Assembly: GCA_008508345.1 (NCBI GenBank)
Contig: QNGE01000945.1
Location: 62,001-126,000 of the forward strand
From: Paragonimus westermani
Taxonomy: Eukaryota > Platyhelminthes > Trematoda > Plagiorchiida > Troglotrematidae
DNA length: 64,000 nucleotides
Reading direction: 5' to 3'
Shown: positions 5,344 to 62,680 of the stretch, one piece after another
How the letters are laid out: each line of letters begins with the position of its first letter
How positions within the stretch are numbered: the stretch's first letter is position 1
Notes under the pieces: model-generated
What the model saw: only the letters and a program-made list of their open reading frames with translations
What the model was told of the DNA's origin: nothing
Database searches by the model: none
Translations under genes and position numbers: made by a program

Positions 5344-7058
5344 CTCACTACTGTTACACTAAAACGTAGGGCAATATATCAACTAGTTAAAAAATCTGTT
5401 CATACAACCTTTTTCAGGTAAAGCATCGTCTAAGCTCTTTGTAAAATATAATGGTTTACAAAAACAACATTCTAGGACCTCAAAAACGAATCGGCTGATC
5501 AGTCTGTTGATAAAATTGGCTAAACAAACACTTGTTAAACCTGATTAACTTCCAATGGTAAGTATGTATTGGTGTATGTAAAACCCTATCTGTAGAGTGA
5601 CGCTGCTGAACCGTTTATTTGGTAAGCGTCTGTCATGTCATTTTCTCGTTACCTGAACTGGACACATGTTGTTGACCAACAATTGAGTGAGTAGATACCA
5701 GGCCCCTGCAGAGACGAGATCCAGGTTACTCATAATGAAGCTGTGTTGCCTTCATTAAGACCGAATAAGTCAATAGTTTAACAAAAAACTACTGCAGACC
5801 AGCTGTAATTTTTCAAAAGACTGATTGTTCGTTGAAACATGCACAGTAAGTTGCTTTCATCTACGCAGTATCGATACAAACGCAGTTGATGTGCTACGTG
5901 AAGACACAATCAGCAACCGGTGTTGGAGGTGATCACGCATGGACTGGACCACGGGAAACTCAAGGTGGGCTATTAGTTACTAGCTAACTGATGTCTTCAA
6001 CCACGTCCAGAGTGGGCCTGGCTGTCACAGCGTTCGTTTGTTATCCCAGGTGTATTTATTTTGCTCGAAGTGATCCGTGGTCAGCCCTTATTAATTGGAT
6101 TCACCACATTCTTTAGGGAATTTTTCAGTAAATTAGTCACTTCAAGCTGGTTAGCATTGCAGTATGCTCATTGGCTGTGGTGACCGGTGACTCCAGTACT
6201 TGGGCACAGGGTGTGAGGGTGAAAAGACAATCTAGGCATTGGGTTCGGTTCAAGTAACACTCCTTCACCTTGGTGAATGCTCACCATTTTTTTCCATCTG
6301 AGAGTGAGGTGGCTAACGATAGCAACCTCAATGTTTGGAGCCGCCCCGATTTACGGCTTCCCATGAACAACAACAAGACAACCAAGGAGAGCCAAAAGAT
6401 ACGAACTGCAAACAACTTCATTCTAGTTCTCCAATCTCTTTCAAGTCGCTAACACACCTCAGCTTTCGGCATCTTCCGCCCCTCACCAAAACGGGAAATA
6501 AGTGTCAAAGAGAGATATGAATATCTAATTCGTTGGAGATGAGCTCAGAGCAAGGCAACGACCACAGAAGAATTTGATAACTACCGAGTCGATATATTGC
6601 CTGGCTTGTCTTTGATGGATGGTCACCGATGTAGACGCTGTTTGCGTAGTCTTCTAGAGCAACAGCCTTGAAGTGGGTCCCTGGGAGTGTGGCGTTTTCT
6701 ACTATGGTTGCTGGTCGATCAGCATTTTGATAGTAAATCAGCTGATCAACGGTTACGGTGCAAAAATTGTGGGTAGAGGTGGACTTGTTTCCTTTGTTCC
6801 TTTGGATTACCACCAGACGTCTAGCAAATTAACTTCAACGTTTCTTCTGCGATCTGAAAGATGTGGGGGCGCTTGTTTTTCTTTAAGGGACATTGTAATA
6901 GGCGAGTAAGTTGTGATGACACATCGGAGTTAGATACATTTAAGACTGATTTCTGTAATACAGCCATTCTAAACACTAATCGCATACGTACTTTGTGAGC
7001 TCATTATGTCTCGATGATCAAAAAGGCCTAATTTGGACTGTATCAGTAACAATGTGAC
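5344..7058. other. no feature recognised
   Basis: Unique-looking sequence without a convincing exon. A 102-codon minus-strand frame at 6505-6813 and overlapping + frames at 6270-6909 show no domain and no flanking splice sites I would trust. Confidence 0.45.
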
Positions 7059-7094
7059 TTGGACTCACTTACAAGCCCAAACGACAGAGAGCAG

Positions 7095-7254
7095 CCAATC
7101 AGACTCCGGCCCAAGGACTCCAGGGAACAACCAATCGGACATCAGGTCAAAGCTAAATTGCGACAAAATCAACCAATAGTGGGTCAGGCCAAACACGACA
7201 GAAACCGACCAACCAGAATTCAGACCAGTAGGTCAACCCACTCTGCTGTATAAG
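7095..7254 (+). promoter_or_regulatory. CCAAT array plus TATA box of the repeat
   Basis: CCAAT occurs at 7095, 7131 and 7173 and a CCAAC variant at 7209, giving starts 36, 42 and 36 bases apart, each in a similar context (A/GRCCAAT). A TATAAG lies 40 bases downstream of the last box, at 7249-7254. The related copy at 19695-19708 has a perfect palindrome, CTCCTATATAGGAG, at the TATA position. This looks like an RNA polymerase II promoter carried inside the element. Function is inferred. Confidence 0.55.
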
Positions 7255-7300
7255 AGCAGGCATCGATCCAACTTCAACAAACGCCAAATTCAAAATTATA

Positions 7301-7376
7301 CGCCGAACACTCACGCACTGACGATGTCACCTCGCTTGGTGATGAAACGTTTGCAACCTAAATGCCAAACTCGGCG
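7301..7376 (+). ncRNA. type I hammerhead-ribozyme-like motif, copy 1
   Basis: Elements in order: stem Ib CGCCGA (7301-7306); stem Ia GCA (7315-7317); core CTGACGA (7318-7324); one extra T (7325); stem II GTCACC (7326-7331), a six-base loop, then GGTGAT (7338-7343); core GAAA (7344-7347); minimal stem III made by ACGT (7347-7350); H17 = T (7351); stem Ia' TGC (7352-7354); stem Ib' TCGGCG (7371-7376), fully paired with CGCCGA. The N7 base differs from the copies at 20 kb (C versus T), which the hammerhead consensus allows. Odd points are the extra base before stem II, a G-U closing pair, and a stem III with no loop, which would favour a dimeric form. Catalysis is not shown. Confidence 0.6.
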
Positions 7377-7445
7377 AACATATCAATACGAAAACAATCA
7401 ACCCGAGCTACAAACAACACCACCACTATTCCTAACCATCAGAAA

Positions 7446-11986: not shown

Positions 11987-12418
11987 AACATCACTCACAT
12001 GCGATCAAAGCCTTCGCATTCGTTCGTGTTAAATCTCGCCGATAATGCATATCTCTACCACGGCCGGAATTAGAACTCCAGCAATGCTATCCTGAGGCAA
12101 CTGTGTTGACAACAGAGCCACTGACCTCACAATTGATAGGATAGTAACTGTGCCTCTTCTCGAGATGATCGGGCAACGTGACTGTTGCTCGCAAATGAAA
12201 GTGGTTGAACGTTCACATATGATAATCTGGTCGTGCTAATGTGAGGTCAGTGACGCATCGGTCAACACGGTTGTCTGAGGAAAGCGTGGCTGCAGTTCTA
12301 ATCCTGGCTGTGGCAAGGATGTAAACTTCTGTTCAACTGGTATAACAAGAGCGAAACTGGAGCCTGATGCTTCTTTTCGAAAGAAGGTAGCTGGTAAGTG
12401 TATCTGAATGCGAAGACT
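11987..12418. repeat. tRNA-derived SINE, inverted double copy
   Basis: The left part (11987 to ~12135) is a reversed copy: 'catcactcac...gatc...gcattc', then a reversed tRNA-like core ending in 'actgacctcac'. From ~12140 the same family runs forward: 'ctcgagatgatcgggcaac', 'ggtcgtgctaatgtgaggtcagtg', a decayed A box, a decayed B box (gttctaatcc, 12295-12304), then the 3' block to 12418. The better-kept relative is at 31069-31385. Two SINE pieces in opposite orientation, joined near the body, could form a long hairpin. Confidence 0.65.
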
Positions 12419-13069
12419 GTGATAATATGTTGGTGATTCTCAACTTAAAAATAATGAAATCCCAGACTACACATCGAGAAGCCAGTATTGCTGGGGAGGA
12501 GCTAACAAAGAAATACGCAACTGTCCAACGGGGACTTCTCACCCGTCACAACCAAGTGTATCATTTGAATATCTTCTCTAAAGTCCGGAGGCCAAAATAT
12601 TGTTATTACTTTGCTGCATATTTTACCGTGGTAAAATTGGTAAAGAGCGACCTTGTGATTGTTGCCATTGGCATAAAGGTCGGTTTAGTAATGGAGTAAT
12701 TAGTGACAGCTATGCGTGAGCAATATTAACACTTATTTAGATTCAGCGTTGACAAATTTGACTGGTCAGTCGACGTATGTAGACAGGTAGTTTAAAGTTT
12801 CTTTTAAAATCACAGCAATGGTAATCAACGAGACGACAAGCCAAAAACTTGGGTAGTTATTCGTGGTAAACTCATGTTGTGTTACACCGAATGAAGATGA
12901 TTTCTGCCACTACCGATGGGTTTTATCCGAACGAGCTGGAGCATCAGCCATCGTGCTACCGATGAAGGTAAAACGAAGTTCTTAAACGTGCGCTAGTTCT
13001 ATTTATGCACGTTATGATAAGAAGTTGCCGGGAACGCAGGGTCAGATTTTTGAAACCATAATACCACTT
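12419..13069. other. no feature recognised
   Basis: A 90-codon + frame at 12427-12699 has no recognisable domain. I see nothing else. Confidence 0.4.
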
Positions 13070-13256
13070 AAGGTCTTGGGGTTCTGATGGTTGGGAAGAG
13101 TGGTGGTGTTGTTCGTAGCTCGGGTTGATGTTTTTGGTATTGATATGTTCGCCGAGCTTGGCATTCAGGTTGCAAACGTTTCATTACCTCGCTTGGTGAT
13201 GAAACGTTTGCAACCTAAGTGCCAAGCTCGGCAAACATATCAAGACCAAGGTCTTG
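13070..13256 (-). mobile_element. Penelope-LTR-like repeat, copy 2, snap-back with TSD
   Basis: Bounded by the 9-bp direct repeat AAGGTCTTG (13070-13078 and 13248-13256), read as a target-site duplication. Inside, the element tail lies reversed (13079-13184) and is joined head-to-head to a short forward piece (13185-13247) that starts within stem II of the hammerhead. The CTGANGA core is absent, so the ribozyme cannot form. The CCAAT/TATA promoter part is missing too. It is therefore a truncated version of the inverted arrangement seen intact at 19559-20890. Confidence 0.65.
13142..13241. repeat. 43-bp arm hairpin inside copy 2
   Basis: Left arm 13142-13184 and right arm 13199-13241 are reverse complements at 40 of 43 positions, with a 14-base loop (13185-13198). 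The arms are two opposed copies of the segment from hammerhead GAAA to the 'acatatc' tail. Confidence 0.85.
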
Positions 13257-14284: not shown

Positions 14285-14388
14285 GTGAAAGTCAGAATTT
14301 CGGCTGGATTCGAACCAGAAACAGACACAACGTGCCTCAACGCGGCAAGCGCTCTACCAGCTCAGCTACGAAGTTCACGGTGAAATCT
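14285..14388 (-). repeat. tRNA-like SINE head, reversed
   Basis: Read on the minus strand there is an A box (TAGCTGAGCTGGTAGAG, 14352-14368) and a perfect B box (GGTTCGAATCC, 14306-14316). A 7-base acceptor-like stem, AACTTCG with CGAAATT, pairs at 6 of 7 positions. The D stem has a mismatch and no good anticodon arm can be drawn, so this is a tRNA-derived SINE or pseudo-tRNA rather than a working tRNA gene. Confidence 0.6.
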
Positions 14389-19558: not shown

Positions 19559-19570
19559 AGATCAGGTCTT

Positions 19571-19669
19571 GGTATTCATATGTTCGCCGAGCTTGGCATT
19601 TAGGTTGCAAACGTTTCATCACCAGGCGAGGTGACATCATCAGTGCGTAAGTGTTTCAGCGTATATTTT
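19571..19669 (-). repeat. left inverted terminal arm of copy 3
   Basis: Reverse complement of 20725-20823. It contains the minus-strand hammerhead-like motif at 19585-19661. Confidence 0.85.
19585..19661 (-). ncRNA. hammerhead-ribozyme-like motif, copy 3 left
   Basis: The same fold as at 20733-20809, on the minus strand: stem Ib CGCTGA (19661-19656) pairs with TCGGCG (19590-19585), with core CTGATGA, stem II GTCACC/GGTGAT, and GAAACGT. Key bases are identical to the right-hand copy. Confidence 0.6.
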
Positions 19670-19694
19670 GAATGTGAAGATTGATCGATGCCTG

Positions 19695-19708
19695 CTCCTA
19701 TATAGGAG
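19695..19708. promoter_or_regulatory. palindromic TATA box of the left LTR
   Basis: CTCCTATATAGGAG is a perfect 14-base palindrome located where copy 1 has its TATAAG box (7249). On the minus strand it would drive transcription leftward through the hammerhead motif. Function is inferred. Confidence 0.4.
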
Positions 19709-19754
19709 AGTGAGTTGACCTACTAGCCTAGATTCTGGTTGGTCGCTTTCCGTC

Positions 19755-20724
19755 NNNNNNNNNNNNNNNNNNNNNNNNNNNNNNNNNNNNNNNNNNNNNN
19801 NNNNNNNNNNNNNNNNNNNNNNNNNNNNNNNNNNNNNNNNNNNNNNNNNNNNNNNNNNNNNNNNNNNNNNNNNNNNNNNNNNNNNNNNNNNNNNNNNNNN
19901 NNNNNNNNNNNNNNNNNNNNNNNNNNNNNNNNNNNNNNNNNNNNNNNNNNNNNNNNNNNNNNNNNNNNNNNNNNNNNNNNNNNNNNNNNNNNNNNNNNNN
20001 NNNNNNNNNNNNNNNNNNNNNNNNNNNNNNNNNNNNNNNNNNNNNNNNNNNNNNNNNNNNNNNNNNNNNNNNNNNNNNNNNNNNNNNNNNNNNNNNNNNN
20101 NNNNNNNNNNNNNNNNNNNNNNNNNNNNNNNNNNNNNNNNNNNNNNNNNNNNNNNNNNNNNNNNNNNNNNNNNNNNNNNNNNNNNNNNNNNNNNNNNNNN
20201 NNNNNNNNNNNNNNNNNNNNNNNNNNNNNNNNNNNNNNNNNNNNNNNNNNNNNNNNNNNNNNNNNNNNNNNNNNNNNNNNNNNNNNNNNNNNNNNNNNNN
20301 NNNNNNNNNNNNNNNNNNNNNNNNNNNNNNNNNNNNNNNNNNNNNNNNNNNNNNNNNNNNNNNNNNNNNNNNNNNNNNNNNNNNNNNNNNNNNNNNNNNN
20401 NNNNNNNNNNNNNNNNNNNNNNNNNNNNNNNNNNNNNNNNNNNNNNNNNNNNNNNNNNNNNNNNNNNNNNNNNNNNNNNNNNNNNNNNNNNNNNNNNNNN
20501 NNNNNNNNNNNNNNNNNNNNNNNNNNNNNNNNNNNNNNNNNNNNNNNNNNNNNNNNNNNNNNNNNNNNNNNNNNNNNNNNNNNNNNNNNNNNNNNNNNNN
20601 NNNNNNNNNNNNNNNNNNNNNNNNNNNNNNNNNNNNNNNNNNNNNNNNNNNNNNNNNNNNNNNNNNNNNNNNNNNNNNNNNNNNNNNNNNNNNNNNNNNN
20701 NNNNNNNNNNNNNNNNNNNNNNNN
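19755..20724. other. assembly gap (970 N)
   Basis: A run of Ns from 19755 to 20724. It sits inside an element with long inverted repeats, which is a common cause of assembly failure, so the gap length may be only an estimate. Open frames that cross it are artefacts. Confidence 0.99.
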
Positions 20725-20823
20725 AAAATATACGCTGAAACACTTACGCACTGATGATGTCACCTCGCCTGGTGATGAAACGTTTGCAACCTAAATGCCA
20801 AGCTCGGCGAACATATGAATACC
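20725..20823 (+). repeat. right inverted terminal arm of copy 3
   Basis: Reverse complement of 19571-19669, followed by the one-sided tail to 20878. Confidence 0.85.
20733..20809 (+). ncRNA. hammerhead-ribozyme-like motif, copy 3 right
   Basis: Stem Ib CGCTGA (20733-20738) with TCGGCG (20804-20809), one G-U pair; stem Ia GCA (20748-20750) with TGC (20785-20787); core CTGATGA (20751-20757); extra T (20758); stem II GTCACC (20759-20764) with GGTGAT (20771-20776); GAAA (20777-20780) running into CGT (20781-20783); H17 = T (20784). Compared with copy 1, one stem Ib pair changes from C-G to U-G and N7 changes from C to T. Both changes keep the fold. Confidence 0.6.
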
Positions 20824-20890
20824 AAATCCATCAACCCGAGCTACAAACAACACCACCACTGTTCCCAACCATCAGAAAGATCAGGTCTTT

Positions 20891-29000: not shown

Positions 29001-32000
29001 ATATTGTTCAAGCACACACTGCTTTGGCAACCTCTAATGCTTCGTTTGAACAGTTGGTTGATTTGTGGAGGATAGAGTTGCATACCAAGGTTCAAAGGGC
29101 ATTGGAGTACCAGGTTCGTTAATTTTGGTCGGAACGTTTAGCTGAGAGACGGTGAAACCAGTTAGTGTCTTCTCTCGAGATGACTAAACAACATGAGCAT
29201 TGCTGTCGTGCAAATATGGCTGAGGATTATTTGACCGTGTATAACGTGAGGTCAGTGACATAGTGGTCAAAAAGTTGCCTCATGAAAATATGGTTGAGTT
29301 TAAAGTGCGGTCGAGGCAATAGAACGGATAACTAATGCGTTTTAACAAAAGTGAAATCACGTACCATGTCTCCTTCCCAAACAGTCTGGTACAAAACTTC
29401 TACAGGACTGCGACAACTACAATCAGATGTGAGTGATTTTTGGGTTGTGTGAAACAAAATCCAATACTACTCACCAGTACAGCTAAATTACAACGCTGAA
29501 TAGCCTACGTCAATGACGGAAAAGTGCAATAAACTGAGGAGAATTTTTTGTACCAGCAGGACGACGGCCCAGTCATCTAAAACGCTGTGCAAATTAGAGA
29601 ATCAGTGACACTTCACACAAGAACAAAGCCACTGAGAAATTCCGTACATGCTCCCTGATTTTTTGTGCTGATTATAACAAGATATTGCATTAGTAGAACA
29701 ATGTAACATGACATCGGTTTGAATCACAACAGAGACCGTGAATAAAAGTTCAGAATAATCAAGCTAAACATATTTAACAATGCATGTTTTTAACTGGACC
29801 AGTGTTCAACCCCAACATTTTGCTGTTTGCAACGGTTGCGTACACTCCCATTCTGAAGACGACTACGAGTGAATGTCCAGGTAGATTATTTTGGTTATCG
29901 TTTAAGTGTGACCGATAGAGTGATGAAAATTTATTCTTCTTGCATAAATGTACAGAGAACTTCAGTTGCTCACTGGGAAAATATACCACACTGCTGATCA
30001 GTCCTAACTAGGTGCCACCCGCACATATGACTATGAATTTCATACTCAGATGGGTCTTCTAGGAAAAACGCGTTCAAGAGGGAGGCATAAGAGGCGAGTT
30101 TCGTTCTCACAAGAGCACGCAAGTAGTGTATATCCTTGTCAGTAGCCGGGGTGTGAAGTGCGGCCAATTCAGGTTATTAAATCCTGTTGATACACGGAGC
30201 AATATATCGGCCATATGTATGTCAGAAGGAGATTCGAGAACAGGTTTGCGCTCATTTGACATCAAATCCGAGTTGGCGGAATAATCTTCATTAATGTGGT
30301 CCTTAAAGAGAGAAGAGAAAACATCCTGACACTGGGGAGCATTGAGACAGAGGGATTAACAGTTCGGCTAAACGGCTGTACGTGAAAGTAGGCAGAGTTT
30401 TTATTTAAAGCCGACAAGGAGAAATTTGTTGTTTAACCATAAACTCAGAAATGAATGAGACTGGTCACGAAATAAAACAATGTCTATAGGCTCAACACAC
30501 TTATTTTGATTGTTTGCTTAAGTACAAACCACTGCATCTTTAGTACAGTCATAATGTCATTTATCGAGAAAAATTAACAATGTATCTGGTGGTTGGTAGC
30601 GAAATATCTGGGGAACGTAGTACATCTTTGCTGGTTGGTGAACGATATTGAGAACTCGCGCCAGGTCGTTGGACATTTGATGTACTATATTGTGCTGGAT
30701 TATTCCATTAAGTTGAATCATCCATGTCCTGAGACTTCTTGAAGCAAACAGTTCTATATAATTATAGATTCCTTCCCTAACCCTAGTTGTATGTGACTTG
30801 AATTGTTTTGCCTACGCCCTAGCCAGGTCGAATCTCAAGGGCTCGCTCCTCTTCACGGTGCTCCACATTCAGTCCGTTGTGTAATCAGATGATGTGATGT
30901 AACATCCAGATTAGTAAAAAGAGTGCAGACTATACTGTTTTACAGCAGAGCATTGCAGTAACAGTTTAATGTTATGTTGAGTAAGTTTGACAAAACAGCA
31001 GTAGATGCTTGATGATCTGCAACCGTATTATCACTGATGAGTAGTCGAAGATTTGGTTTATTTTCAAGTTGACCATCACTCACGTTTGATCGCAGCGTTC
31101 GCATTCAGATAGACTCTCCAGTCAGCCTCTTTAGAAAAGAAGCGCTAGACTCGAGTTTCGCTCTCATTAGAGCTCGTCAGTAGAGTCTATCCTTGCCACG
31201 ACCGGGATTTGAACTCCGGACATTCCAATCATGAGGTAACTGTGTTGACCACTGCGCTAGTGACCTCACATTAGGCACGACCAAATTATCAAATCTGAAC
31301 GCCCAACCACTCTCGTTTGTGAGCAATGATCATGTTGCCCGATCATCTCGAGAGGAGACACAGTAGCTGTCCCGTTAACTCCAATCGATAAAAAACCATA
31401 TTATCGCAGATGGAGATGACAGTTACCGAGTCTGTCTTCGTAATTAGTTTTAAGATGGTTATTCAATTTTGGTCACCGACGCCTACCTAATACATTCAAC
31501 TCAATACAGAGACAGTTGGCCAAAACAGTTGTTTACTGCTTGATAAAAACCACAAGGCAGACAAAATACACCAGGTGTTGTCTCTGAAACCGCTCACTAT
31601 CATACAATGTGTGTGTACTGTATTTTGTCTTTTCTCACCGCTAAGTTACTCTCTCATGTTTTTATGCTCCAGTTTGGGTTCCATGCCACGTATCCGATTT
31701 GGACAAATGTCAACACTTGTTGTTGAAATTTCAGCCGGAGCTGCAAACCGATCATCCGGTACGTTTTGAAAGTTTGATCTTGTCGAAGCCGATATTAAGT
31801 TACTATCTGAGGATACGTAAGTTACGCACATATTGGCAGTACATTGGTAAGCCCTCATAGTGAACGCTGTCGTAATGAAGAGCGCACTGTAACGAAAAGA
31901 GTTTATGATGCTGAAATTATTCCATGCCAAGGAATTGACTTTTCTTTTCATCCTAAGTGGAGCTGTTGTAACAAGAATCTCTCCGTGGGGAACAAACTAA

Positions 32001-53000: not shown

Positions 53001-56000
53001 AAAATTCAACCTTCAGTTCGAGCTATATCGGATGAACAACTATGAATGACGTAAAATGACAATGTACTTGTAATTTTGGAAATGCTGTCCTGTGTAACAT
53101 TGTTAAAAATGCCGTGGTACAAGTAATCTAAATCACATTGACAGAGGATTTCGATTACAACACTCCTGAGGAAGGCCACCCGAGGTGGTTGAAACGTAGA
53201 GTATTACGCCGTGGTACAAGCTTCAACGGCGACACAATATTTCTAGAATAATCCTTTGGCATCGTAATCAAATACGATATGTGATAATGTTGACCGAGTG
53301 GGTTTTTACAATGGAAACGAAAACGACGTTTGCCGATATATGTTGTGTGAGTTCTACGTTCGTTTTACGAGCTCAAAGCGATGTACTTATCGCTGTCTTT
53401 GGCGGTTGCTCCTCCGTTTCTTGTTCATCGAAGACGATTTGTGATTGGTTGGTTTGCAAGCAAATATCAGTCAGGGACTGAGAAGAGAAACAAATGGGTC
53501 ATCACTGACTGTATTACTAGCGACCACTGCGTCAACTTGATAACTGTTCAGCCTATCATCCAGTCATTGGTTCACAGATAGCGGTTTCGGTTACGGTACC
53601 TCTGTGATGCTCATATGTTAACGAATAGTGAGAACATTTGCTCACCAGTTAATTGTTGACCAGGAAAACGATCTGCTTGCAACTCACACTTTTGGATCAA
53701 ATTAATAGGTGGCGAAAGGTAGATTTTCTAAACAAACAGTCATTTACCAAAACGACTTTGTCATGATAATGCATCTGAATGGTTTTTCAATCCTGGATTG
53801 CACGAACACTGTTCATAGCAGAGCTCCGGTTGCCTGATTTTTACTTGACCCACTCGAACTCTGGTTTTCCACGACAGGTAATCCATAAGGAACGGTAGCC
53901 CTGAAGGCCTGTAAAAGCTCAATGGAAATTAAGGTCTGTTGCCATTCTATTGCAATACCGTCCACATAGTTCATAACGGCCAATGCAGAAACTGAACCAA
54001 CCAGGATGCGAACGTTGATTTAATTCAACTTTCTCCTCAGACATTTTGCCATCGATACTAATTGTGGAAAAATAACATTTCTTTAAATCAGACGAGTAAA
54101 AACGTATTTAAGCAATGAGTTGCTTGTTGGTATGTATTAGGAGAATACAGCTTATAAGAACTGGGTGTCACGCACAATTAGTGACAGCTTTGCATTCACA
54201 AACCCGTATCAGCCATCTGTCGGATCTGAGATAAGCGACAATGCTAACTCACGCTTGAGTTGCCGAATTCAGCACTCACCTTTTCCACACTAGAATGTGG
54301 AGGTGGAGGCTCATAGGATACGTATACTGTTGATTGGCAACGACCAAGAAAAAGGTTACACGCTTCCAGTTGGTTCTGTTCATTGGATGTATGCTCTTCA
54401 TGTGACAATATATTGTGCGGTTGCATGGTGGGTATTTCTTATGGAAAATTGAATTGGAAAATACGCCTTCCTTTTGCAGCAATCTAGTGGTATACATACT
54501 GTAAGCGTATAAAATTTATTCACCTCAGCAAGAAAAGCACGTTAGTGTTGGTTTGAACCCAGACTACACTTTATTTATTCCTCCTTCACAAAGCTATTCT
54601 GGTTCACCATCGAATTCGGACTGTGTCTTGAGGTAGATCAGCTACGCGCAGTTGGGGCCGGTATACTCTCCTCATTTGGAGAATTGGAACACGCGTTCAG
54701 TGACGAGTCGGAGAAACGTCCTCTGGAGCCAAGCACTACGGCTATTCAACCATACGATGATGTAGGTTACCAACCGGTCTATTTTGTGTGCCAGTCCTTC
54801 GAACTAATGGAACAACAACTGAAGTAAGTCATCAGACTCACAAATGATTCCTCTTGAACTGACATCCTATTGTCACCAACACAGTAACTCGTAGGCGATT
54901 TATTGACGGCGCCGGTGCGAAAGTCAACCGGCGACTGCAGCTATTCTGTCGTTTTTAGCTTTCGCTGGATCGATTTTAACTTGGTCATGTTTACCTATGG
55001 CATTCCAAGCCCTACATTCTGTGATAGATAAGCCGATCAATACCACTCAACACTTGAGTATTGCTCACATGATCCATGCAATTGAACCACAAAAGGAATT
55101 AACTCAGCGTGGGCATTCAAATTAACAAAGTGATTTATTACCCGGTTTATTCTAAACTACGTTCATGGGCATTTGGCTTCCCAAATTTGGAAGTGTTGGC
55201 GGAGGCTGTACGAGTTGTAGTCTTTGTCATACTTATTGTTAGTGACCCTCAGTCGTAAGCTTGCCAGCGTTCATGATCGAAATTGGACGTTGTCACCTAC
55301 CCTGTCCACTTCATTTACTCAGTATGAGATATGAAATGTATGGGTTCAGTGAACTTCAACGGCGTAAAACATTAAGCGATATTTCATCTGATATAAAGTT
55401 ATGGGAACCAACCTAGATGACAATACACCAGATGATTACAGCATATGGTCGCCAGCAGTGGTATGCCCCCTAAAGGACAAACAATTTTGGTGTGTCTCAA
55501 CAGTGATAGCATATGGATGGAATGCTATTAACAGTAAGAATCATGTTTATAAAATAATCAAGCCTGACTGTTTCTGACACTTCTGACTTATAATCACTAC
55601 TGCAATATTTGGTTGTTTTGGATTAGCAATCATATGTGATGTTACGTTTACACAGTCAGTTGCTTCAGTCAAGCAAAAATGTCCGAGTATTTTCTGATCC
55701 CCTAGGTCTCACTGAAATGGTAAAACCAACCACTGTGATTGAACCGCGCTTAGGGGTATTGTGGGGTCGTTGACCGTAGGCGAACGTCGTACCGAAAGGA
55801 TCTTTCGTTTCGTAGTTGGAGACTGATATTGTCTTGATAACTGGTAAGTAGCTAGCCCTGATACTACCCACAGAGAAGGGATCAGAGTTGGACGCCTCAT
55901 TCACTTTGTTTCAACAACACAGTTATTTAGTAATATACATTTTTTAAAGGGAGATAATAAACGTGGCTGACTGGGGTAAATTCTTGAAACGATGTTTTGG

Positions 56001-58659: not shown

Positions 58660-60223
58660 AGTGCGATAGGGTAACAATTTGTTCACTCTCATCAATCACG
58701 AAAATAAAACCCGCGGGTCAAGTACATCAGACAAACAGAAACGAACTATAAGTATGCTCACGAATAATCGTTCCGCGTATTGTGCAATCATGAACATAGC
58801 AACCCAATAGGCCGCCCCAGCCGAATTTGTGAAAAAAACACAGGCTGTCAAGTCCGGGTGGGTATAGGTACGTCGAAAGCTAGTAATTTCAGGTTTGCTA
58901 ACTGCCTAACGATAGTTTGACTGGGCTAACTCGGCGAACCTAGTGACTTGTTGTCAAGGCGTGGGAATTCGAGCACCTGGTTCATCAGGTTGAGGCTGGC
59001 GCGTAATCAATTGCTTCTATCCCATCAGCTATTGTTTTGCCACTGAACCTGGTGGTCGTCGATCTGTTTTATCAGTGTGTACAATAATCTAAATATGAGA
59101 ATTGTTAAACCATCTGATTTTGCGAGTACTTGAAACTGACGATTGATATGTTGATCTAATTGCAGCTGCTCATCAGCATACGTTTACGCTCTGGCAAGCT
59201 TTAATTTGTGCGTTCGATCTTCTGCCAGATTATTCCTCATGAGTTGTAACCCCCTTTTACAGGTATTCTCAGTCGTGAACTTGTTAGTTGTTTTCCGAGT
59301 TGATATCCATGACATGATATCTATGACATGCGCGCTCTGTCCTATATGTCTCATCTCATTATGCACTGAAAACATTCAGCCTAGTTTTAAAAACTGACCC
59401 ACTAACGGATAAACAACGTGATTAGAGGTAATCCGTCGGCTCAAACACTAACGGATATCTTTAAAAGAATAACTGATAATACCAAGTTAACTTCACTGTG
59501 TAAATCATGAGTTTGATTTTCATAAGCATTATTAGTTTCACTTAAAAAACAGCTGTGTAATTTCGTTTCTTTCATGCAGTAGAGTTGAATAACACGCTCG
59601 AATTCGTTGATGAGCAACGTACGGACGGCAAGGTAAGGCGGTCCGTCCACTAAAAAACTTCACGAAGTGGTAACTTTCTTCAGTTCCCCAGTTCTTGTTT
59701 AATTGCACGCAAACGTGGTTTGGTCAAATCCATTGCTCACATAGTAGATCGCTGCTCTGCGGATGCTGACCATATCCTAAACGTATGCTGATGAGCAGCT
59801 ACAGTTAGAACAACATATCAGTGGTAAGTTCTAAGTCTGGGGGCAAAACAATGTCTGATGGGATAGAAGCAATTGATTACGCGCCAGCCTCAACCTGATG
59901 AACCAGGTGCTCGAATTCCCACGCCTTGACAACAAGTCACTAGGTTCGCCGAGTTAGCCCAGTCAAACTATCGTTAGGCAGTTAGCAAACCTGAAATTAC
60001 TAGCTTTCGACGTACCTATACCCACCCGGACTTGACAGCCTGTGTTTTTTTCACAAATTCGGCTGGGGCGGCCTATTGGGTTGCTATGTTCATGATTGCA
60101 CAATACGCGGAACGATTATTCGTGAGCATACTTATAGTTCGTTTCTGTTTGTCTGATGTACTTGACCCGCGAGTTTTATTTTCGTGATTGATGAGAGTGA
60201 ACAAACTGTTACCCTATCGTACT
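58660..60223. mobile_element. 1.56-kb fold-back element
   Basis: The outer arms 58660-59042 and 59841-60223 are both 383 bases and are near-identical reverse complements (a handful of mismatches and small indels seen by eye). Farther in, a perfect 23-base inverted match (59164-59186 with 59778-59800), with flanking similarity, shows that the arms originally extended further and that one side lost about 70 bases. No open frame of note lies in the centre, which contains a 14-base tandem duplication (59302-59329). The outer ends read AGTGCGATAGGGT... and ...ACCCTATCGTACT. A target duplication is not clear (possibly TTA). Class undetermined: a MITE or foldback DNA element, or inverted LTRs. Confidence 0.8.
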
Positions 60224-60774: not shown

Positions 60775-60955
60775 AGTGAGGTTTTCTGGACTAGCATTTC
60801 GTACAATCGGATCAAACGTTGATATGTAACTAGTTCCAAACATTACGATAGTGTCCCACAGATAAGAAGTCATGGCTTAAGGGATTAGACAGACAGATAC
60901 GGAAATGAAGAATAAAAATATAGGGACGTTGACTACCAGGGCAGCCGGAACGTCA

Positions 60956-61120
60956 TCACATGTTGGTTCGAAACACCCGGGTGGGATTCTGATGTCTGAT
61001 TGTCAGAGCCTCAGCAAACAGGAGGATGTGTCTGCGGTCGCTACGAAAAATCAGAGAGAACGCGCCACAATCTTTGACTTTGTGCCCTGTTTGGATCAAG
61101 TGCTTTGCTGTTGATGACGC
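60956..61120 (-). pseudogene. GIY-YIG endonuclease fragment, C-terminal part
   Basis: A different minus-strand frame carries STAKHLIQTGHKV, then RSDRRHILLFAEALTIRHQN to a stop at 60956. This matches the S-A-I-x-x-H...TGH...R...R.L.EA..I end of Penelope-type endonucleases. It is separated from the preceding fragment by a frameshift. The same end recurs in opposite orientation at about 62410-62490. Confidence 0.65.
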
Positions 61121-61662: not shown

Positions 61663-62680
61663 GTGTGCCGGTGTTAATATATCATGCCGCCTTTGTTTGT
61701 AGTTACGATGTTAATAAGCGACATGCACTAACTTCAGCCGGTTTTCATTTTCCTCGGACGTTGACAAATATCGTTGTTGTTTGTAAACATTTTCGAACCG
61801 CATATATAACCCACGTTCTCCAGTTTTCTTTGGTGATTTAGCAAACTTCACGCTTCAACAGAAAGTTTTAATTCGAGTCCTTGTTAACGGTTCTGACGGC
61901 AAATTAATAAAATATCTATTAAGCTCTTTAGGAACCGGAGACCTACTTGAAATTGGGCAAAATGGATCACCGAGCGATTACCCACATTCGTTTATTGCAA
62001 TCTCTAGAACGGTCCGCAAAAATCCTTATATTTGACTCGACAAACAATCGATAGGTCCTTCGTAAATGGTCACAACTTTTCGTGAATCACCTTACGCGAG
62101 GCCAGATTGTGTTGACAAAGTTCAGCGTGGGATTCGGTTATTCGTTTGAGGTCTTAACTATTAGACTACAGGCCATACGATCTGAATTTTTTCGTTAATT
62201 CCTGCAAAATCTGGCACTTAAAAAGCTATCAAGCATACTGGCAGTTTCTTTTGGGTGTCTTCTTCGTAGGAATTTGAAGCGATTTACTCCCACGATGAAT
62301 AAGGCGATGAGAAGACGTTAATCACGTGCTGTTCTCGTGGGTGACAGTACATTCTGATCACATGTGGAAGCAATAAAATAAGGTCTCATAGAACGCACCC
62401 TCTGTAATTTTTCGTAGCGACCGCAGACGCATCTTCCTGTTTGCTGAGGCTCTGACAATCAGACACCAGAATCCCACCCGGGTGTTTCGAACCAATTTGC
62501 GTTGACGTTCCGGCTGACCTGGTAGTCAACGTCCTTATATTTTTAATCTTCATTTCCGTATCTGTCTGTCTAGTCCCTTAAGCCATGACTTCTTATCTGT
62601 GGGACCTTATCGTAATGTTTGGAACTAGTTACATATCGACGTATGATTCGAATGTACCAACTGTAAATCCGGAGAACATT

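What the first reader, a model, noticed from the sequence alone, without database searches (positions are those of the whole stretch)
53162..53202. A second, unrelated repeat shares the same odd hammerhead plan
Stems I and II differ entirely from the other family, yet the extra base after CTGANGA, the G-U closing of stem II and the GAAACGT minimal stem III recur. Two independent sequences keeping the same departures from consensus suggest a selected ribozyme subclass, perhaps acting as a dimer through the ACGU palindrome.
Basis: partly seen in the sequence, partly recalled or inferred. Interest (0 to 1): 0.8.

Follow-up and report, generated by a model that had tools for sequence, protein, structure and literature searches.

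The report
Penelope-type jumping-gene hammerhead ribozyme
The marked 41 bases look like a tiny self-cutting RNA motif (a hammerhead ribozyme) left behind by a Penelope-type jumping gene, which is a known kind of ribozyme; its many relatives in this genome also hint at a strict rule for how such a jumping gene pastes its two ends into DNA.

Summary
The hammerhead plan is really there (53162-53202) and beyond chance. [quoted passage not shown] The window copy is a short insertion between 13-nt target duplications (53111-53123, 53208-53220). The same ribozyme lies about 40 nt behind the stop codon of RT/GIY-YIG elements of this genome (20 of 20 regions). The other family marks a second PLE clade (11 of 11 regions); the two proteins share 22% identity over 149 residues. 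So two old lineages do keep the same odd hammerhead, and dimer action is already the published idea for PLE hammerheads. Genomic copies show no compensatory stem II changes.

Less expected: many insertions have two outward-facing arms, one ending at a short and one at a long start of reverse transcription: 29 of 29 classifiable small pairs; of nine ORF-bearing pairs seven fit, one is long/long with identical inverted flanks, one lacks an arm. Coordinated priming at both DNA ends would explain this; arms of several pairs are nearly identical, so self-priming is not excluded. Cleavage and dimerisation were not tested.

The parts
53162..53202 (+). Minimal hammerhead ribozyme, family B (stem I 53162-53165/53199-53202, core 53166-53172, extra A 53173, stem II 53174-53180/53184-53190, GAAAC-GU 53191-53197, predicted cut after 53198)
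53147..53207 (+). Part of the insertion that matches the family B element leader (reference positions -19 to +41 from the core)
53111..53123 (.). Left copy of the 13-nt target duplication
53208..53220 (.). Right copy of the 13-nt target duplication
53124..53146 (-). Rest of the insertion; by inspection it resembles the reversed 5' end of the leader, so perhaps a short remnant of an opposite arm (inference)
7058..7445 (+). Family A copy, long, ribozyme core 7318-7350; no target duplication found
13082..13249 (.). Two-armed family A insertion, arms truncated inside stem II, duplication AAGGTCTTG at 13070-13078 and 13248-13256
19565..20878 (.). Two-armed family A insertion interrupted by 970 N (19755-20724 from the breaks in the self-match); ribozymes 19611-19643 (-) and 20751-20783 (+); duplication GATCAGGTCTT at 19560-19570 and 20879-20889

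Best explanation
The feature is the minimal, stem-III-less hammerhead ribozyme of a Penelope-like retroelement, carried here by a short 5'-leader insertion. In complete elements the ribozyme lies between the GIY-YIG end of one copy and the ORF start of the next. It is expected to cut tandem or read-through RNA after H17 once two ribozymes pair through ACGU; this is inferred from published PLE work and not shown here. The element protein starts reverse transcription a little 3' of the ribozyme, at one of two sites, and copies back through it. Because the RNA 5' end is inferred to lie about 10-30 nt upstream of the ribozyme, most family B insertions sampled are just ribozyme plus tail, which would account for the high copy number. 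Often both DNA ends are extended, giving two outward-facing arms, one from each start site. Shown: identity of the element, its place in two PLE clades, target duplications, divergent short/long arms. Inferred: catalysis, dimerisation, RNA start, and two-ended priming as the cause of the arm pattern.
For: Target duplication at the window copy and flank matches of 8 nt or more in 30 of 79 insertions against 2.5% in re-paired controls. Family B ribozyme region in 20 of 20 regions at the 3' end of RT/GIY-YIG ORFs, core intact in 19; tandem junction L098 leads into an open RT frame of 660 aa. Family A ribozyme region in 11 of 11 such regions, core intact in 10; at tandem junction L076 the next ORF starts at an ATG inside the ribozyme, as reported for the Anolis element (PMC11167929, main text read). 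Trematode homologues of the family A protein. 5' ends within 32 nt of the core in 48 of 50 family B copies. Short/long arms: 29 of 29 and 7 of 9 with one exception and one unclassifiable.
Against: Pfam hits of the family B ORF pieces lie just under the curated cut-offs (RVT_1 28.1 vs 29.6 bits, GIY-YIG 20 vs 22.6), and the family A ORF piece gave no Pfam hit. No Rfam hammerhead model matches. RNA folding does not prefer the hammerhead: monomer minimum -14.8 against -11.8 kcal/mol for the family B hammerhead stems, and dimer minimum -40.4 against -21.5. In vitro the Anolis ribozyme needed protein to cut, its mutants did not change insertion, and RNA reads did not end at the cut (PMC11167929), so a role of cleavage in insertion is unproven. 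Near-identical arms in several pairs leave room for self-priming.
Confidence: 0.88

Rival explanations
1. One reading: a free-standing repeat family kept by selection as a dimer-acting ribozyme.
For: Same departures in two families; stems of copies chosen for an intact core differ less from the reference than the tail.
Against: Both families are junction pieces of autonomous elements; copies carry target duplications and truncated ends; no compensatory change in stem II within families; 9 of 104 catalytic sites changed in 8 unselected family B arms, no better than the tail (24 of 320, p 0.68; this set holds only broken cores, which inflates the first figure).
Confidence: 0.05
2. The two-armed insertions arise by self-priming: one cDNA folds back and copies itself, and stops before the end of the long arm.
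For: Proposed for rotifer Penelope from palindromic junctions (PMC3846280 Discussion, there with an antisense template). Arms of one insertion share variants more than re-paired arms, and in five of eight ORF-bearing pairs with both arms the arms are 97.5-100% identical, although in some they are only about 85% like the reference.
Against: Self-priming predicts equal arms, yet every classifiable small pair has unequal ends at the same two positions. Single-armed insertions also end at the short site. Arms of some pairs differ much (C2412 79%, C936 86% identity). Both sites are start sites in vitro and both strands are extended (PMC11167929).
Confidence: 0.25
3. A retrozyme or SINE-like non-autonomous element with a hammerhead.
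For: Small size of the copies; animal retrozymes carry type I hammerheads (PMC7229834, passages).
Against: Copies are dispersed single or divergent arms, not small direct tandem repeats; the same ribozyme sits in RT/GIY-YIG elements; helix III is lacking.
Confidence: 0.03
4. A chance match to a short consensus.
For: The core is short, and Rfam finds nothing here.
Against: 4 against 0.05 expected in the window; 7,806 against 514 in the genome; fixed place in elements.
Confidence: 0.005

Closest known systems
Minimal hammerheads of Penelope-like elements (Cervera and de la Pena 2014; Lunse, Weinberg and Breaker 2017; neither held, known from citing papers)
   Same: Hammerhead core, stems I and II, hardly any stem III, thousands of dispersed copies, place in PLE pseudo-LTRs, suggested dimer action
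   Different: Whether the extra base and the G-U closing pair are in those papers could not be checked
Poseidon element of Anolis carolinensis and its ribozyme (PMC11167929, main text read)
   Same: Ribozyme at the pLTR/ORF junction, start codon inside the ribozyme (family A), two reverse-transcription starts just inside the ORF, both DNA strands extended
   Different: Family B has its start codon about 55 nt 3' of the cut; the strict one-short one-long arm pattern is not described there, and no strand difference was seen in vitro
Penelope elements of the rotifer Adineta vaga (PMC3846280, passages and Discussion read)
   Same: Head-to-head inverted pLTRs, short target duplications, an optional tail on one of the inverted pLTRs
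   Different: The paper favours self-priming; the pieces here are mostly ribozyme-plus-tail fragments
Schistosoma mansoni W-element hammerheads (PMC8490949, passages)
   Same: Fluke genome; minimal hammerheads with very short stem III
   Different: Satellite-like W elements, not PLE insertions

Membership tests
Penelope-like element | RT and GIY-YIG endonuclease in one ORF | tested here: met
   Matches to RT/GIY-YIG proteins over both parts in open frames; note Pfam scores just under the curated cut-offs for family B and none for the family A piece
Penelope-like element | Tandem or partial-tandem copies forming pseudo-LTRs | tested here: met
   Two copies 2,687 bp apart on C6133 and two on C3884
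Penelope-like element | Target duplication, optional tail, inverted copies | tested here: met
Penelope-like element | Place in the PLE tree of reverse transcriptases | not tested
   No tree was built
Hammerhead ribozyme | Catalytic core CUGANGA and GAAA with stems I and II | tested here: met
   weak stem I in family A
Hammerhead ribozyme | Stem III | tested here: inconclusive
   Cannot form in one molecule; ACGU could pair between two, but folding energies do not favour that dimer
Hammerhead ribozyme | Self-cleavage | not testable with these tools
   Needs an RNA assay
Canonical Rfam hammerhead families | Covariance-model match | tested here: not met
Metazoan retrozyme | Small direct tandem repeats with a type I hammerhead | tested here: not met
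   In the sampled loci adjacent arms are divergent in 36 of 37; the window has only 2 short tandem arrays, neither at these sites

The most novel reading that the evidence does not exclude
PLE integration is a coordinated two-ended reaction: the protein uses the two start sites of its RNA once each, one per DNA end, so every completed two-armed insertion has exactly one short and one long arm. The outward-facing hammerheads are a by-product of copying the RNA's 5' leader from both sides. A further speculation is that ribozyme cleavage of tandem RNA removes the downstream start sites and so limits full-length copying.
Probability: 0.38. Interest if true: 0.65.

Novelty: new member of a known kind. 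Interest (0 to 1): 0.42.

Why it matters
The ribozyme adds two PLE clades of one genome, one of them with the start codon outside the ribozyme, to a known kind. The larger value is the genome: a great number of small insertions that record both ends of the reaction. How PLEs integrate is left open in the papers read (self-priming or separate priming, sense or antisense template), and the one-short one-long pattern is a sharp constraint that can be counted in any PLE-rich genome.

Tried and rejected
Chance motif: rejected. Free-standing selected repeat: rejected because both families are element junctions. Retrozyme: rejected. Compensatory change within families: none in stem II (36 distinct family B and 21 distinct family A sequences); in stem I of family B one cell in each of two pairs. 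GIY-YIG family search of the genome gave one match, which reads like SLX1 (that name is recalled), so the Pfam model missed the PLE endonucleases. Canonical hammerhead in three other RT/GIY-YIG clades: none on the element strand in 12 flanks of about 1 kb. Species: not named; the closest named homologues are from trematodes, besides one labelled Cetobacterium.

Rows dropped or set aside: L009 repeats L008 and was left out of counts; L003 holds no family B copy. Of 38 two-armed insertions 9 could not be classed by tail; the class limits were set after seeing the ends. L016 spans an N, so 28 of 28 without it. Of nine ORF-bearing pairs picked by eye from the list, five fall in the same class limits, two (C7111, C852) have a short end 1 and 3 nt outside them, C3512 is long/long with identical inverted flanks, C2556 lacks one arm. 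The minus arms of C2412 and C2674 are identical over 129 nt, so these two pairs may not be independent.

Full report
Observation. Core, extra A, G-U closing pair, GAAACGT and predicted cut after A53198 are as described. Four motif matches in 64 kb against 0.05 expected, and 7,806 in the 823-Mb genome against 514 for the reversed pattern, exclude chance.

What carries it. I compared the window copy with 46 other family B loci and 20 family A loci taken from the first 100 places listed. They were chosen for an intact core and come from the first contigs only, so the sample is not random. The copies are short insertions. Their 3' ends cluster at two positions: family B about +79 to +89 and about +130 or more, family A about +73 to +82 and about +120 or more, counted from the first base of the core; the references end at +153 and +127. 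Their 5' ends lie within 32 nt upstream of the core in 48 of 50 family B copies. The longest match between flanks was at least 8 nt in 30 of 79 insertions, against 2.5% when flanks were re-paired. The window copy has a 13-nt duplication, 53111-53123 and 53208-53220.

The parent elements. An ORF upstream of a long family A copy (L053) matches GIY-YIG proteins of Clonorchis sinensis and Opisthorchis viverrini at 49-58% identity. A protein from that search with precomputed RT and HTH domains (P0003) finds 99 matches in the genome among 96 scored of 14,400 candidates, many uninterrupted. In 11 regions at or beyond their 3' ends (10 flanks and one tandem junction) the family A ribozyme region is present in 11 of 11, with intact core in 10. 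At the tandem junction L076 the next ORF starts at an ATG inside the ribozyme, as in the Anolis element (PMC11167929, main text). Family B has its own element: in L020 an RT/GIY-YIG frame, 23-32% identical to the homologues P0001-P0007, ends about 40 nt before the ribozyme; it is 22% identical to the family A protein of L053 over 149 residues. Of the 150 matches scored (of 5,083 candidates) I fetched 20 regions: the family B ribozyme region is in 20 of 20, with intact core in 19. One tandem junction, L098, leads into an open frame of 660 residues with an RT match just under the Pfam cut-off. By counting on the reference, the family B start codon lies about 55 nt 3' of the cut, so unlike that of family A it would survive cleavage.

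Evolution. Between the clades the plan is kept while stems I and II differ in sequence (by inspection). The Clonorchis protein P0007 runs past its GIY-YIG domain into a reading of the same ribozyme, consistent with the extra base, and matches family A ribozymes at 77-82%. Within families stem II shows no compensatory change. Eight family B arms with a broken core, reached only because a neighbouring copy was selected, show 9 of 104 catalytic, 9 of 176 stem and 24 of 320 tail mismatches; the set leaves out intact arms, which inflates the first figure. In copies selected for an intact core, stems differ less than the tail (B 5.7 vs 8.3%, p 0.019; A 2.7 vs 4.9%, p 0.073). Subfamily differences in the tail or selection in source elements could cause that. 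On balance selection acts on the living elements and not on the dead copies, but these data show it only weakly.

Two-armed insertions. Where two arms lie within 80 nt they are divergent in 36 of 37 cases, never convergent. In all 29 pairs where both arms could be classed, one arm ends at the short and the other at the long position (at most 2e-9 if the ends were independent; 28 without the gap-spanning L016); 9 further pairs could not be classed. As a check not based on ribozyme intactness I took nine inverted pairs of ORF-bearing family B elements: seven are short/long (two with a short end 1 and 3 nt outside the class limits), four with duplications of 10-13 nt; one is long/long but has identical inverted flanks; one lacks an arm. 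Arms of one insertion share variants more than re-paired arms, and in five of eight ORF-bearing pairs they are 97.5-100% identical (the long/long pair, also 100%, is left out of the five but counted among neither the differing two). So they come from one RNA or close kin, or were homogenised or misassembled later. Self-priming, proposed for rotifer Penelope (PMC3846280, Discussion), explains identical arms but not the fixed unequal ends. Two priming events on one RNA, one per start site, explain both. PMC11167929 found both start sites and extension of both strands in vitro, but no difference between strands.

Known or new. Minimal PLE hammerheads, probably acting as dimers, are in print (PMC7761336, passages; the primary papers are not held). 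None of the listings of my paper searches names the short/long rule in a title or abstract start; most listed papers I did not open. PMC3846280 says the tail is optionally present on one of the inverted pLTRs, so the rule sharpens a known trait.

Limits.

Noticed in passing
L103-L114 (3' flanks of three other RT/GIY-YIG clades): No canonical hammerhead (0 of 12), but near the 3' ends all three clades have, by eye, a stem, a GAAA, a second stem followed by UC, and the closing of the first stem; in one clade the core reads CCGANGA. Perhaps a variant or decayed hammerhead.
   Followed up: partly
31125-31198 (-): Weak Rfam match to hammerhead HH9 (26.4 bits, cut-off 52, E 0.025) inside a repeat of about 340 bp (31036-31372, relative at 12139-12475); the relative lacks the core.
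   Followed up: partly
13154-13229: Sub-threshold mir-329 match; it lies in the palindrome of the two-armed family A insertion 13082-13249, so it is probably not a microRNA.
   Followed up: yes
58660-59041 and 59842-60223; 60781-61058 and 62400-62677: Inverted repeats, 98.7% over 382 bp and 90.6% over 278 bp.
   Followed up: no
14295-14375 (-): tRNA-like match just under the Rfam cut-off (28.1 vs 29 bits).
   Followed up: no
Families A and B, near the short 3' end: TATCAATA stands near the short reverse-transcription start in both families although the sequence around it differs (by eye); perhaps part of the start signal.
   Followed up: no
C2412 and C2674 (L121, L122): Minus arms of two family B pairs on different contigs are identical over 129 nt but end at different tail sites.
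   Followed up: no
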